Positions 21,972 through 38,275 of a stretch of 64,000 bases of DNA are shown here, one piece after another. Both the position numbers and the translations under genes were made by a program. The stretch is from Peredibacter starrii (lineage in GTDB: Bacteria > Bdellovibrionota > Bacteriovoracia > Bacteriovoracales > Bacteriovoracaceae): assembly GCF_034259205.1 (NCBI RefSeq), contig NZ_CP139487.1, positions 1,736,001-1,800,000 on the forward strand, in the 5' to 3' direction. The stretch's first letter is position 1, and every line of letters begins with the position of its first letter. Below the pieces are notes generated by a model. That model worked only from the letters and a program-made list of their open reading frames with translations. It searched no databases and had not been told where the DNA came from.

Positions 21972-22473
21972 AACTTCGCGGCTCCTCATTCGCCCCTGGA
22001 AAGATGAGGACGTTAAGCACTATCTCGCAATGTCTGTGGACGTGGGCTACAACTGCTTTACACCACCGGGAGTCTATCTCGTTAAAGACGAAGGTGAGGC
22101 CCTGACAAAAGTCCGCCTACGCATAAAAAACTTCACCGATTCCGGAATAGGGAAGTTTCCTATCTTCTTAAAAGAGACAGGAGAATTCATCGGAACCTGC
22201 GGTGCCGACAAATTTGATCTTGATGGAAAACAAGAATACGAACTTGGTTATCGCTTTATGCTAAATCATTGGAACAAGGGTTATGCCACGGAATCCGCAA
22301 ACGCTCTCCTTGATTACCTATTAAAAGATTTAAAACTTCCACAAGTTCATGCTTTTGCTGTTTATCAAAATCCAGCGTCTCTTAAAGTCATTGAGAAAGT
22401 TGGCTTTACCTATCTAAGAGACTTCATGTGGTCTAACCTAGTTCACAGGCTTTACATTAAGTCTTGTTCTTAG
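21961..22473 (+). CDS. GNAT-family N-acetyltransferase
   Basis: A 170-residue acetyltransferase of the RimJ/RimL type. It opens IKTSRLLIRPWKDEDVKHYL, has ELGYRFMLNHWNKGYATESA (acetyl-CoA-binding loop Q/R-x-x-G-x-G/A in variant form NKGYATE) and HAFAVYQNPASLKVIEKVGF. It would acetylate an amine or protein N-terminus in the cytosol; the substrate is unknown. It overlaps the YecM-DUF4269 gene by eleven bases and ends convergent with the 22457 gene, overlapping 17 bases. Confidence 0.85.
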   Translation: MEIKTSRLLIRPWKDEDVKHYLAMSVDVGYNCFTPPGVYLVKDEGEALTKVRLRIKNFTDSGIGKFPIFLKETGEFIGTCGADKFDLDGKQEYELGYRFMLNHWNKGYATESANALLDYLLKDLKLPQVHAFAVYQNPASLKVIEKVGFTYLRDFMWSNLVHRLYIKSCS

Positions 22474-22990
22474 GATCAAAAATCGGCGCCTCATGACGAA
22501 GCTCTCCGTCTTTTTTGATTTCAATTGTGCCACCGGTCTTATGTGAAAAGATCATTTGGCCTTCCATCTTTTGTTCCGTCTCAACTGCACAGTTTTCACA
22601 TTGAGTGATCTTTCCGGCCTGACCCTTACGATCTTCTAGATTGTATTCAGCTCCACAAGTCTCGCAAATGGCGGCGGTATACTTCTCGGAAGGCACCTGA
22701 TTCTTCACTTCAACTTTGTTTTTCGCCATGTTCTTTGTATGAGTCATGGTGCGACTGCTGGTTGACCCACTGATAAATGGCATTGAAGCAGTTTTCGGTT
22801 TTACAATTTCTGGCTCCGGCGCTTCTTGAATAATTTCGAGATCGCTCGCCCGAATATTGGCGCGAGTGCCATTGGCAAGCATACAGGCCGCATTCTTGCG
22901 CCCCATCTCGTCCTGACTGACATTCGTAATTCGGACAATTTCACCCAAATATCTTCCAGCTATGACCTTGGCTTTAATGATTTTACTCAT
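22457..22990 (-). CDS. zinc-ribbon protein with a KOW-like N-terminus
   Basis: A 177-residue cytosolic protein. Residues 1-55 look like a small beta-barrel (AKVIAGRYLGEIVRITNVSQ, RANIRASDLEII), similar to KOW/SH3 nucleic-acid-binding domains. A low-complexity linker follows (SGSTSSRTMTHTKNMAKN). Residues 108-135 hold a four-cysteine zinc ribbon: AICETCGAEY and ITQCENCAVE. The tail is another strand-rich stretch (SHKTGGTIEIKKDGEL). A role in RNA or DNA binding is inferred. TATAAT lies exactly six bases before the ATG; it is divergent from the HNH gene. Confidence 0.65.
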   Translation of the reverse strand: MSKIIKAKVIAGRYLGEIVRITNVSQDEMGRKNAACMLANGTRANIRASDLEIIQEAPEPEIVKPKTASMPFISGSTSSRTMTHTKNMAKNKVEVKNQVPSEKYTAAICETCGAEYNLEDRKGQAGKITQCENCAVETEQKMEGQMIFSHKTGGTIEIKKDGELRHEAPIFDPKNKT

Positions 22991-23024: not shown

Positions 23025-23043
23025 CCTCCTGAATCCGTCGATT

Positions 23044-23068
23044 ACTTTCGCCAGCGGAAGTGATTTTT
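23044..23068 (+). repeat. palindrome copy upstream of the HNH gene
   Basis: ACTTTCGCCAGCGGAAGT is an imperfect palindrome with an eight-base stem (one G-T type mismatch) around CA, followed by GATTTTT. Twenty-four bases from ACTTTCG to GATTTT are identical to the right-hand copy at 38.25-38.27 kb read on the minus strand. Confidence 0.75.
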
Positions 23069-23074
23069 AAATAG

Positions 23075-23103
23075 TTGACAGTTCCGTATCTTTTCCGTAT
23101 TGT
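23075..23103 (+). promoter_or_regulatory. HNH promoter with tandem CCGTAT repeats
   Basis: A perfect TTGACA (23075-23080), a 17-base spacer and TATTGT (23098-23103). The spacer holds CCGTAT-CTTTT-CCGTAT, a direct repeat with an 11-base period that overlaps the -10; a repressor operator is a possible reading. The ATG at 23111 is seven bases after the -10, without Shine-Dalgarno. Confidence 0.65.
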
Positions 23104-23110
23104 TTCTAGC

Positions 23111-23980
23111 ATGAGACTAAATCATGTTGCAAATAAAATTTTACTTGGTGATACAAAAAAGCTCACGGGGACCGAAAGGGCAGTGACGGTAAAACTGCTT
23201 CATCATCTCAAAGAGATAGAGAGAAGAAAGCTTTACAGCGACTTAAAGTACTCCTCATTATTCTCCTATTGTGTAAAAGAGCTTGGGTATTCTGAGGGAG
23301 CCGCCCAGAGACGAATTGTTGCCGCTCGAGCACTGGCCGAGATGCCAGAAATTGAGAAGAAAATCGAAGAGGGGAAATTAAATCTCACAAATATTTCATT
23401 AGTGAATCAATTTATAGATGATCCCATTCAAAAGCGCGAGGTCTTCAAGGAGGTTGAAAATTTAACTAAGAAAGAATGTGAGCAAAAACTTTTTGAGATC
23501 ACCGGTAAAGAAATCACACCGGATAAAAATAAACGAATTTCAAAAAATAAGATTCAAGTGGCCGTGGTGCTATCTGATGAAACGATGGAGTTAGTTGATC
23601 AACTCAAAAACCTGCTTGGTAAAGAGATGGAGATGGATCAATTGGTTCAGTTCATGGCAAAGAAGGCCATTGAATCAATTGAAAAAACGAAGTTCAGACA
23701 AACAAAGCCGCGCCAATCACTTTCGCCAGCGGTCCGCAGGCACGGAGTGAAAGTAGGAAGAGCAATTCCAGCGTCAGTAAAACGCACAGTCTATGCACGA
23801 GATAAAAAATGCACTAATTGTGGATCAACTCATAACTTAAACTATGACCACATCATTCCATATTCAATGGGTGGGCCAGCTTCAGTCGAGAATATAAGAC
23901 TTTTATGTAGGGAGTGTAATCAGAGAGGCAGAATAAGAGCGGGGCTAAAGGCGCCCCGCCCGAAAGTGATTATAATTTGA
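23111..23980 (+). CDS. HNH endonuclease
   Basis: A 289-residue protein. The N-terminal 190 residues are helical (SLFSYCVKELGYSEGAAQRR, an HTH-like stretch, and EMPEIEKKIEEGKLNLTNIS), as in the DUF222-type HNH proteins. The C-terminal HNH nuclease begins around residue 225: RDKKCTNCGSTHNLNYDHII, then MGGPASVENIRLLCRECNQR, with both zinc C-x2-C pairs and the D-H catalytic motif intact. The ATG at 23111 fits the promoter; the upstream GTG-type extension does not. The last 11 bases overlap the convergent nuclease gene. Possible role: cleavage at the repeated palindrome (inference). Confidence 0.85.
   Translation: MRLNHVANKILLGDTKKLTGTERAVTVKLLHHLKEIERRKLYSDLKYSSLFSYCVKELGYSEGAAQRRIVAARALAEMPEIEKKIEEGKLNLTNISLVNQFIDDPIQKREVFKEVENLTKKECEQKLFEITGKEITPDKNKRISKNKIQVAVVLSDETMELVDQLKNLLGKEMEMDQLVQFMAKKAIESIEKTKFRQTKPRQSLSPAVRRHGVKVGRAIPASVKRTVYARDKKCTNCGSTHNLNYDHIIPYSMGGPASVENIRLLCRECNQRGRIRAGLKAPRPKVIII
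23715..23754 (+). repeat. palindrome-related sequence inside the HNH gene
   Basis: AATCACTTTCGCCAGCGG at 23715-23732 is identical to the left half and centre of the upstream palindrome. GTGAAAGT at 23747-23754 gives an inverted outer arm. It lies in the linker just before the HNH domain. Confidence 0.55.
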
Positions 23981-24974
23981 AATCCATTCCGATACCAAGA
24001 TGGTCAGAAAAGCCAGTGGCCGATTCGTGATTAAAACGCATTGGAACCATCGCCTGACCTTCACGTTTCATGAGGAAGTCACGAACCATGATTTGGAAAG
24101 TGCCGAAGTTTGGAGCGAGACGAGAACTTTGATGAATCCACATTCTGTCCAGAGAAGTCCAACTGCCTTTGTAGAAGTGAGTACCAGGATTAAGATTACG
24201 GTTAACCTTACGGGCCTCTGTTTCTGCATTGATAAATCCATTCAGGTAATTGAATGGGTAAGGGCGATCTGTTTCAACTGTGTTGAAGTCACCAGTAGCG
24301 ATGATCAGATCTGCATTTCTTGAAGCTGCAAGATTTGTAAGTAGTTGAGCTGCAGCGATACGATCTTCTGCCGGATTGCTTTGAGAAGGCCAGTGGTTAC
24401 CGAAAACGATAACAGTGCGGCCTTCAACGTTGATCGCCACTTCTGTGATACCGCGAGTATCAAGTTTTTGGCCGTTAACAAAAATAGAGTGGTGCTGAGC
24501 TCTGATAACCGGGTACTTCGACATAATACCAACGTCGATTCCGCGAGCATCATCGCCTTCGATCAAAACTTGGTAAGTGTATCCAAGATTACGAAGGCCC
24601 TTTGCAGCAAGAGCATTTAGCACATTTAAGTTTTCAACTTCTTGAAGAATTAGAATGTCAGGACCTGCACCTGTGTTATCATATGAGCGAACAACACGAG
24701 AGACGTTTTCAACCTTTTTCATGAAACGAGCTTCGTTCCAGTCAAGGTTTAAACATTCTTTGATTGCAAAATTAGAACGCTGTTGCTGGCAAAGTTCTGT
24801 ATGCCCAGGGATTTTTCTTTTTTCCTGAAGTGAGATGTACGTGTAGTCTTCAGTGCCAGCATCGTGCTTGGTATCGAAGAAGTTCTCAGCATTGTAGTTC
24901 ATCACTGAGAACGAAGTTTTGGCTTGCGCTGCTAGTGTGAAGCTAAGAGCGAGAAGAGCGATTAGAGTTTTCAA
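23970..24974 (-). CDS. secreted endonuclease/exonuclease/phosphatase (EEP) family protein
   Basis: A 334-residue exported enzyme with signal peptide KTLIALLALSFTLAAQA. EEP motifs are SVMNYNAENFFD (Asn and the metal-binding Glu region), DILILQEVEN with the catalytic Glu, VFGNHWPSQ with His, IATGDFNTVETD with D-x-N, and GFSDHLGIGMDF with the D-H pair. It could be a secreted DNase or phosphatase; its export suits degradation of external nucleic acid. TTG is the start codon, with AAGAAGG upstream. The stop codon falls in the end of the HNH gene and its repeat. Confidence 0.85.
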   Translation of the reverse strand: MKTLIALLALSFTLAAQAKTSFSVMNYNAENFFDTKHDAGTEDYTYISLQEKRKIPGHTELCQQQRSNFAIKECLNLDWNEARFMKKVENVSRVVRSYDNTGAGPDILILQEVENLNVLNALAAKGLRNLGYTYQVLIEGDDARGIDVGIMSKYPVIRAQHHSIFVNGQKLDTRGITEVAINVEGRTVIVFGNHWPSQSNPAEDRIAAAQLLTNLAASRNADLIIATGDFNTVETDRPYPFNYLNGFINAETEARKVNRNLNPGTHFYKGSWTSLDRMWIHQSSRLAPNFGTFQIMVRDFLMKREGQAMVPMRFNHESATGFSDHLGIGMDFKL

Positions 24975-25108: not shown

Positions 25109-25867
25109 ATGAATTACATTACCTCGCTCATTCTAGGGATTGTTGAAGGACTCACTGAGTTTCTCCCTGTGTCATCGACTGGACATTTGATCCTTGCGTC
25201 AAATGCTTTGGGAGTACCTAATGATGACTTCTTAAAAGTTTTTGAAATCGTTATTCAAACCGGTGCGATTCTCGCGGTGATTTATATTTATTGGAAAGAT
25301 CTCTTAAAAGATCACGCTTACATTTTAAAAATCGGTGTGGCCTTCATTCCAACTGCGATCCTGGGACTTCTTCTTCACGGTATTGTGAAAAAGTATCTCT
25401 TCACTCCAGTGGTGGTTTGTTCGTCGCTTTTCATTGGCGGTATTGTTCTTCTCTTTTTAGAAAATCTCACGGCAAAGATCCAGCCTAAGAAACTTACGTT
25501 CTTCCATTATTTTCTAATCGGTACAGGTCAGTGTCTGGCCTTCATTCCGGGGGTCTCCCGATCTGCTTCTTCGATTCTTGCAGCGAGACTGCTGGGAGCG
25601 AGCCGTGAAGAAGCAGTGAAGTTTTCTTTCTTACTCGCAATTCCAACGATTCTTTCAGCTTCGGCCTATTCACTTCTTAAAGTGAAAACGCAAATGGTTC
25701 AGGCAGAATATATCTACTTACTTCTGGGTCTACTCACTTCATTTGTGTTCGGCTTTTTAAGTGTGAAGTTTTTCCTTAGAATCCTTAATCACAAGACCTT
25801 CATCGTATGCGGTATCTATCGCATGATCATGGCCGTGGTTTATTACTTAGTTTTCATTAACGTATGA
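25109..25867 (+). CDS. uppP: undecaprenyl-diphosphatase
   Basis: A 252-residue inner-membrane enzyme of the UppP/BacA family. It has LGIVEGLTEFLPVSSTGHLIL, the (E/Q)-E-P-S-S-T-G-H motif region at residues 8-28, and FIPGVSRSASSILAARLLGASREEA, the P-G-x-S-R-S motif. Eight membrane helices are predicted. It dephosphorylates undecaprenyl diphosphate to recycle the lipid carrier for peptidoglycan and O-antigen. Its stop overlaps the dsbB-like start by four bases (ATGA), giving an unusual uppP-dsbB-dsbA operon. Confidence 0.95.
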   Translation: MNYITSLILGIVEGLTEFLPVSSTGHLILASNALGVPNDDFLKVFEIVIQTGAILAVIYIYWKDLLKDHAYILKIGVAFIPTAILGLLLHGIVKKYLFTPVVVCSSLFIGGIVLLFLENLTAKIQPKKLTFFHYFLIGTGQCLAFIPGVSRSASSILAARLLGASREEAVKFSFLLAIPTILSASAYSLLKVKTQMVQAEYIYLLLGLLTSFVFGFLSVKFFLRILNHKTFIVCGIYRMIMAVVYYLVFINV

Positions 25868-26280
25868 TGGGCTGGACGATACTTTTTCTTTCTTGGTTTA
25901 TGTCGGCGGTGGCCACACTGGGAAGTTTATTCTTCAGTGAGGTCATGAAGTTCCCGCCTTGTGTGCTTTGCTGGTACCAACGCATCTGTATGTATCCCTT
26001 GGTGCTGGTTCTTTTTATGGGGCTATTTCCTTATGAGAAGAAGGTCGCAAGATTTGCACTTCCGCTGGCGATAGTGGGCTGGTTCATTGCTCTTTATCAC
26101 AACCTTCTTTACTATCATATTCTTCCAGAGAGCGCGGCCCCTTGTGTTCAAGGTATCTCGTGCACAACCGTTCAGATTCAATGGTTTGGTTTTGTGACCA
26201 TTCCATTTATGTCGTTTGTGGCGTTCTCGTTTATTGTTGTTTCACTACTTTTATTGAAGAGGATCTCCCATGAAAAATAA
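25864..26280 (+). CDS. DsbB/BdbC-like disulfide-bond oxidase
   Basis: A 138-residue inner-membrane protein with four helices. The first redox pair is in PPCVLCWYQRICMYPLVL (C-x2-C with the W-Y-Q-R that follows in this family). The second pair is in APCVQGISCTTVQIQWFG (C-x6-C). It would reoxidise the DsbA-like partner and pass electrons to quinone. Its short length suits the BdbC branch. It overlaps uppP by four bases and the dsbA-like gene by eleven, so the redox pair is translated together. Confidence 0.9.
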   Translation: MMGWTILFLSWFMSAVATLGSLFFSEVMKFPPCVLCWYQRICMYPLVLVLFMGLFPYEKKVARFALPLAIVGWFIALYHNLLYYHILPESAAPCVQGISCTTVQIQWFGFVTIPFMSFVAFSFIVVSLLLLKRISHEK

Positions 26281-38143: not shown

Positions 38144-38275
38144 TCACTTTCGCTGGCGGAAGTAAAAATCTCTTGCCAATCAAAAATCACTTCGATAAAA
38201 ATACGGAAAAGGTACGGATTTGTCAAATGATAAATTCGGCCAATACAAAATCACTTCCGCTGGCGAAAGTGATTT
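38144..38275 (-). repeat. solo copy of the HNH promoter/palindrome unit
   Basis: Two copies of the palindrome face each other: TCACTTTCGCTGGCGGAAGT at 38144-38163 and TCACTTCCGCTGGCGAAAGT at 38251-38270. Between them on the minus strand is a promoter (TTGACA 38221-38226, 17-base spacer, TATTTT 38198-38203) whose spacer TCCGTACCTTTTCCG is nearly identical to that of the HNH promoter at 23075-23103. There is no coding sequence. It resembles a deletion derivative that keeps ends and promoter but has lost the gene. A short RNA with palindromic hairpin could be made from it. Confidence 0.7.

What the first reader, a model, noticed from the sequence alone, without database searches (positions are those of the whole stretch)
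23042..23974. HNH gene carries a repeated palindrome before, inside and at its 3' end
ACTTTCGCCAGCGGAAGT precedes the HNH gene; AATCACTTTCGCCAGCGG recurs inside it just before the nuclease domain; an inverted CGAAAGTGATT closes the 3' end. Three copies in under 1 kb, with one in coding sequence, are unlikely by chance. The palindrome could be the cleavage or recognition site of the HNH protein, which would make this an undescribed self-associated element similar in logic to REP/RAYT pairs or homing endonucleases but with an HNH enzyme.
Basis: partly seen in the sequence, partly recalled or inferred. Interest (0 to 1): 0.65.

Follow-up and report, generated by a model that had tools for sequence, protein, structure and literature searches.

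The report
HNH-nuclease mobile element with cognate palindrome
A relative of predatory bacteria carries about ten scattered copies of a DNA-cutting-enzyme gene, each starting at and carrying inside it the same short palindrome that is also spread alone around the genome, often beside transcription stop signals, which looks like a self-spreading DNA element run by an enzyme type not known to do this.

Summary
The palindrome is real, genome-wide and tied to the HNH gene. The genome (a Bacteriovoracaceae relative) holds about 43 palindromes and 10 close HNH copies at unrelated sites. All 10 begin at the palindrome and carry a second one inside the reading frame, at codons with no synonymous variation. 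Short derivatives (two inverted palindromes around a relic of the HNH promoter) and solo palindromes also occur. In relatives the palindrome occurs where a close HNH gene does; some more divergent HNH genes carry different palindromes at corresponding places. Two relatives with such elements have no detectable RAYT-type transposase. All 24 scorable HNH copies in the genus point into a convergent gene, normally ending near its stop codon and terminator; orthologous sites without the element mostly have an ordinary terminator there. The predicted N-domain resembles ParB/Noc/KorB palindrome-binding domains and weakly matches DUF222. I conclude it is a REPIN-like mobile element family associated with a DUF222-like HNH protein that probably binds the palindrome. 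Cleavage and HNH-driven mobility are inferred, not shown.

The parts
23044..23061 (+). left-end palindrome ACTTTCGCCAGCGGAAGT; element boundary
   Evidence: Across 10 copies base agreement rises from about 0.4 to 1.0 at its first base, usually preceded by T-Y; flanks of the paralogues differ to the left of it
23075..23103 (+). HNH promoter (TTGACA-17-TATTGT), so close to the ATG that the mRNA may be leaderless
   Evidence: Consensus scan, 10 of 12 matches; conserved in the close paralogues and recognisable in the short derivatives
23111..23980 (+). HNH gene, 289 aa: ParB-like/DUF222-like N-domain (aa 1 to about 133), helical middle, linker, C-terminal HNH nuclease (aa 234-272)
   Evidence: Pfam HNH 1.4e-10 and DUF222 0.0014, below its cut-off; AF2 model and fold comparison; HNH residues H247 and N261 invariant and D246 nearly invariant in 22 relatives
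23719..23754 (+). internal palindrome in the linker coding sequence: left part 23719-23730, 18-bp insertion 23731-23748, right part 23749-23754; unbroken in the other nearly full paralogues
   Evidence: zero synonymous differences at these codons in 8 paralogues
23937..23961 (-). right-end hairpin, overlapping the HNH 3' coding end; at the terminator position of the convergent gene
   Evidence: Terminator scan; comparable right-end hairpins in other copies; orthologous sites without the element mostly have a plain terminator there
23961..23971 (+).
22457..22990 (-). left neighbour gene (reads away from the element)
   Evidence: ORF table
23970..24974 (-). right neighbour, convergent gene; its stop codon is at the element's right end
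38146..38270 (-). short derivative (REPIN-like doublet): two inverted palindromes around an HNH promoter relic; the palindrome at 38146 lies a few bases past a host terminator T-tract
   Evidence: (89% over 38 bp to the HNH promoter region, E 3e-8)
26058..26075 (.). palindrome with one mismatch inside a 138-aa coding frame (25864-26280)

Best explanation
This is one copy of a dispersed mobile element. From left to right it has a palindrome, a promoter, a gene for a DNA-binding HNH protein with a second palindrome in its linker codons, and a right-end hairpin. Most likely the ParB-like N-domain binds the 18-bp palindrome as a dimer, and the HNH domain nicks DNA so that the element is copied to new sites, preferentially at intrinsic terminators and in one orientation, so that its right-end hairpin takes the place of the host terminator. 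Deletion derivatives with two palindromes and solo palindromes are non-autonomous copies or scars spread in the same way, as REPINs are by RAYTs. Shown: dispersal, conserved end structure, cognate palindrome, DNA-level constraint on the internal palindrome, terminator polarity, sites lacking the element in relatives. Inferred: binding, nicking, and that the HNH protein itself drives copying.
For: (1) Ten close copies in G000 at unrelated sites; all have the left palindrome and the internal one. (2) Palindrome with up to 1 mismatch: about 43 distinct sites in G000, present in G001 and G018, whose HNH genes are 60-64% identical and carry it at the same two places, one hit in G009, none in the other relatives searched; reversed control 0. 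(3) Other palindromes at corresponding places: G014 TGACTTCATC-YR-GATGAAGTCA near -60 and at the 3' end, 6 copies in G014 and 0 in G000; G010 a partly degenerate ACCGCCACCGGTGGCGGT type at both places; G017 and G009 linker only; G022 upstream only. (4) G010 and G014 each have their own solo palindrome after the same tRNA-Glu terminator. (5) Zero synonymous differences at the internal palindrome codons in 8 paralogues, gene mean 0.406. (6) Five two-palindrome derivatives; four keep detectable HNH-promoter sequence. (7) Right neighbour convergent in 24/24 genus copies; with baseline 0.44, 21/21 gives 4e-8; distant-order relatives are mixed. (8) Citrate synthase and speA 3' ends: element in some species, plain terminator in most others. 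(9) Six of about 18 non-HNH intergenic palindrome units lie within 30 bp past a terminator, against 4.2% of control positions. (10) Two AF2 models: the best N-domain matches are ParB/Noc/KorB DNA-binding domains, Z up to 10.2 and 8.1.
Against: No experiment shows binding, cutting or movement. The ParB resemblance is structural; the sequence profile test is weak (E 0.0056, probability 6.6%, and 1 of 60 shuffles scored almost as high), and Z near 8-10 for a helical domain can arise by chance (note). HNH nucleases are not known to act alone as transposases (own knowledge). G000 has four Y1 (RAYT-type) genes, so trans-mobilisation cannot be fully excluded there. Many solos are not beside terminators. 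Many family members in the same genus lack detectable palindromes. No direct pair of occupied and vacant sites was found for the window copy itself.
Confidence: 0.62

Rival explanations
1. The HNH gene is a passenger or non-autonomous element whose palindromic ends are moved in trans by a Y1/HUH (RAYT or TnpA) transposase, as in IscB- or TnpB-only IS605 derivatives.
For: Palindromic ends, doublets and solos are typical of RAYT systems; G000 has four Y1_Tnp genes.
Against: No Y1_Tnp match in G001 (listed 100% complete) or G014 (84%), which carry the palindrome and element; the four G000 Y1 genes lie more than 50 kb from any listed palindrome; genomes with Y1 genes but no close HNH gene lack the palindrome (G009 has one hit); the palindrome type varies with the HNH gene. 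G018 was not in the Y1 search.
Confidence: 0.15
2. The palindrome is mainly an operator: the HNH protein is a KorB-like regulator of itself and of other genes, and copies spread by ordinary recombination.
For: Palindrome upstream of the promoter; ParB/KorB-like N-domain.
Against: Many extra copies lie past terminators rather than in promoters; an in-frame copy in the coding sequence; dispersal to unrelated sites with sharp boundaries and truncated derivatives; HNH residues kept.
Confidence: 0.13
3. Homing-type element: the protein cuts solo palindromes and the gene is copied into them by repair, with gene conversion between copies.
For: Copies cluster by genome although two sites are shared between species; solo palindromes could be vacant homing sites; REP13E12, a DUF222-HNH family, is a gene-conversion hotspot (PMC13061034).
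Against: Most copies are at sites not shared between species, and the orthologous sites without the element that were read have a terminator and no palindrome, so insertion is not limited to existing palindromes.
Confidence: 0.15
4. Chance or coding-constraint repeats with no functional link.
For: The window's third copy is a half-site and one hit lies in an unrelated coding sequence.
Against: 0 control matches, genome-wide enrichment, linkage to all 10 close copies, synonymous constraint.
Confidence: 0.02

Closest known systems
REP/REPIN sequences with RAYT transposases (PMC3116915)
   Same: Short palindrome in many dispersed copies, singles and inverted doublets, tandem arrays, linked to a nuclease-type gene with the same palindrome; cognate pairs differ between species
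   Different: The partner is an HNH protein with a ParB-like domain, not a Y1/HUH tyrosine transposase; one palindrome lies inside its coding sequence; the right end stands in place of a terminator with fixed polarity
REP13E12 / DUF222-HNH repeat family of mycobacteria
   Same: DUF222-like N-domain plus C-terminal HNH, multicopy, no defined function (PMC13061034)
   Different: DUF222 match is below Pfam's cut-off here; palindromes and terminator polarity were not examined in mycobacteria
IS200/IS605 elements with IscB
   Same: Palindromic or hairpin ends, an HNH domain
   Different: HNH part only matches IscB, no guide-RNA family match in Rfam, no Y1 gene in the element
Group IIC introns
   Same: Use DNA hairpins such as gene terminators as insertion determinants (PMC3898094)
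   Different: No reverse transcriptase, no intron RNA found
ParB/Noc/KorB
   Same: Predicted N-domain fold; these bind short palindromes as dimers (own knowledge)
   Different: HNH nuclease fused; sequence similarity marginal; no partition partner sought

Membership tests
REP/RAYT (REPIN) system | Y1/HUH tyrosine transposase as the linked gene | tested here: not met
   Linked gene is HNH; Y1 genes not near any listed palindrome, none in G001 or G014
REP/RAYT (REPIN) system | Dispersed palindromes, inverted doublets and singlets, species-specific | tested here: met
REP13E12 / DUF222-HNH | DUF222 N-domain with C-terminal HNH | tested here: inconclusive
   HNH clear; DUF222 18.4 bits against cut-off 24.4, N-terminal in 5 of 9 members
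REP13E12 / DUF222-HNH | Multicopy dispersed gene | tested here: met
IS200/IS605-IscB | IscB architecture with RuvC and HNH, and omega RNA | tested here: not met
   IscB model 36.8 bits against cut-off 175, HNH part only; no Rfam match
Group IIC intron | Intron RNA and reverse transcriptase | tested here: not met
   Only HNH and a weak DUF222 match of note in the ORF; no Rfam match
Homing endonuclease gene | Insertion at homologous vacant sites of one cognate locus | tested here: not met
   Copies at many unrelated sites; only two sites shared between species apart from one near-identical pair of genomes
ParB-family DNA-binding domain | ParB HTH fold | tested here: inconclusive
   Top structural matches in two models; profile comparison marginal
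ParB-family DNA-binding domain | Specific binding of a palindrome | not testable with these tools
   Needs purified protein

The most novel reading that the evidence does not exclude
An autonomous bacterial transposable element whose only enzyme is a ParB-like/DUF222-like HNH protein: it recognises a cognate palindrome, inserts with fixed polarity at transcription terminators so that its end rebuilds the terminator, and spreads REPIN-like derivatives; the REP13E12/DUF222-HNH proteins of actinobacteria would be distant relatives doing something similar.
Probability: 0.4. Interest if true: 0.88.

Novelty: new variant of a known kind. Interest (0 to 1): 0.72.

Why it matters
REP-like palindromes spread by anything other than a Y1/HUH transposase are, to my knowledge, not described; the searches for papers on DUF222 with HNH, or on REP palindromes with HNH, returned none that reports it. 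It gives a testable function to DUF222-HNH proteins (REP13E12), described as lacking a defined function (PMC13061034), predicts a binding site for each, and suggests that DUF222 may be a ParB-like palindrome-binding domain. Insertion that rebuilds the host terminator would be a low-cost niche for a mobile element.

Tried and rejected
Rfam search of the element: nothing. Relatives in viral contigs: none; plasmid and phage searches gave partial hits only, none covering 80% of the protein. Vacant-site search with the window's own right neighbour: only 48-57% identical homologues, so no usable vacant site; citrate synthase and speA sites were used instead. Combined pattern for G010, G017 and G022 palindromes: too degenerate, near control level except an exact solo in G010. 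Upstream palindromes in distant orders (G056, G057, G054): none found. Sequence profile search of the N-domain against PDB: no ParB hit. Chance as an explanation was rejected on the control counts.

Full report
Observation. ACTTTCGCCAGCGGAAGT stands at 23044-23061 and its left part again at 23719 inside the HNH frame. In the window copy the internal palindrome is split by an 18-bp insertion; in the other nearly full paralogues it is unbroken or has a changed base or two. The 3'-end CGAAAGTGATT at 23961 is a half-site absent from the other paralogues. The exact 14-mer occurs 19 times in the 4.15-Mb genome against 0 for the reversed control, and the 19-bp form with one mismatch allowed gives about 43 distinct places, counted by me from the listings.

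Copies. The genome has 11 HNH matches: nine nearly full copies (78-100% identical), one (L029) whose match ends at the internal palindrome, and one distant copy (46%) without palindrome. In the ten close copies the base agreement rises from about 0.4 to 1.0 at the first base of the left palindrome. The C-terminal residues differ from copy to copy where the frame runs into the flank.

DNA-level constraint. Across eight G000 paralogues the codons of the internal palindrome show no synonymous difference, against a mean of 0.406; with G001 and G018 added they are among the lowest windows, together with the first codons of the gene.

Derivatives. Five places have two inverted palindromes, four of them 95-107 bp apart and one about 180 bp apart; four keep significant similarity to the HNH promoter region, among them window 38146-38270. 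Other palindromes are solo or in tandem arrays.

Species specificity. Among 58 genomes the palindrome occurs in G000, G001 and G018, with one hit in G009. In G001 and G018, HNH copies carry it at the same two places. G014 has another palindrome near -60 and at the 3' end, with two solos, both past tRNA terminators. G010 has a partly degenerate pair and one perfect solo at the same tRNA-Glu terminator as a G014 solo. G017 and G009 have other perfect palindromes in the linker, G022 one upstream. Many further family members have none detectable. The Y1_Tnp search found no match in G001 or G014 and four in G000 away from the palindromes.

Terminators. In 24 of 24 scorable genus copies the right neighbour is convergent; with about 21 independent sites and a baseline of 0.44 this has probability 4e-8. 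The baseline comes from a simple ORF caller on the window. Relatives from other orders show mixed orientation. At citrate synthase, G018 and G001 have the element and the other genomes read mostly show a terminator; at speA, G000 and G018 have it and most others show a terminator. Of about 18 non-HNH units in G000, six lie within 30 bp past a terminator against 4.2% of control positions. In the window the terminator of the convergent gene falls inside the HNH 3' end.

Protein. Pfam finds HNH (1.4e-10) and DUF222 below its cut-off. Two AF2 models of members 45% identical (pLDDT about 73) give ParB, Noc and KorB DNA-binding domains as the best N-domain matches (Z 10.2 and 8.1). A profile comparison with ParB domains of the same lineage is collinear but weak. 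HNH residues are kept.

Reading. The simplest account is a REPIN-like mobile element family associated with a palindrome-binding HNH protein. What is shown is structure, dispersal, linkage and polarity. Binding, nicking and HNH-driven copying are inferred. Movement by a trans-acting Y1 enzyme is less likely but not excluded in G000.

Comparison. The logic is that of REPINs and RAYTs (PMC3116915), but the defining Y1/HUH enzyme is not the linked gene, so it is not a member. Terminator hairpins as insertion determinants are known for group IIC introns (PMC3898094), which this is not. The gene's domain make-up resembles the mycobacterial REP13E12 repeats, whose function is undefined (PMC13061034).

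Noticed in passing
G000:C1:1235188-1235380 (L156): Tandem array of eight degenerate palindromes with 25-bp period.
   Followed up: no
G000:C1:3180569-3180749 (L129): Four palindromes with about 54-bp period next to a terminator, followed by a derivative with an HNH promoter relic.
   Followed up: partly
window 26058-26075: One-mismatch palindrome inside a 138-aa coding frame; insertion remnant or chance.
   Followed up: no
window 23098-23113: The -10 box ends 7 bp before the ATG; HNH mRNA may be leaderless, and the first codons are also synonymously conserved.
   Followed up: no
G056 (loci L209-L220): A genome of another family in the phylum has 30 match segments to this HNH family; the 12 copies read showed no upstream palindrome and mixed neighbour orientation.
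   Followed up: partly
L219: Perfect 20-bp palindrome AATCCCGTCCGGACGGGATT inside a distant HNH family gene, before the HNH domain.
   Followed up: no
G000:C1:748515, 1339564, 2817110, 3866446: Four Y1_Tnp (RAYT-type) matches, none near the palindrome; their own REP sequences were not sought.
   Followed up: no
G014:C29 (L163), about 761 bp after the ATG: A third G014 HNH copy has a different perfect palindrome TTCTAGGGCGCCCTAGAA near its 3' end.
   Followed up: no
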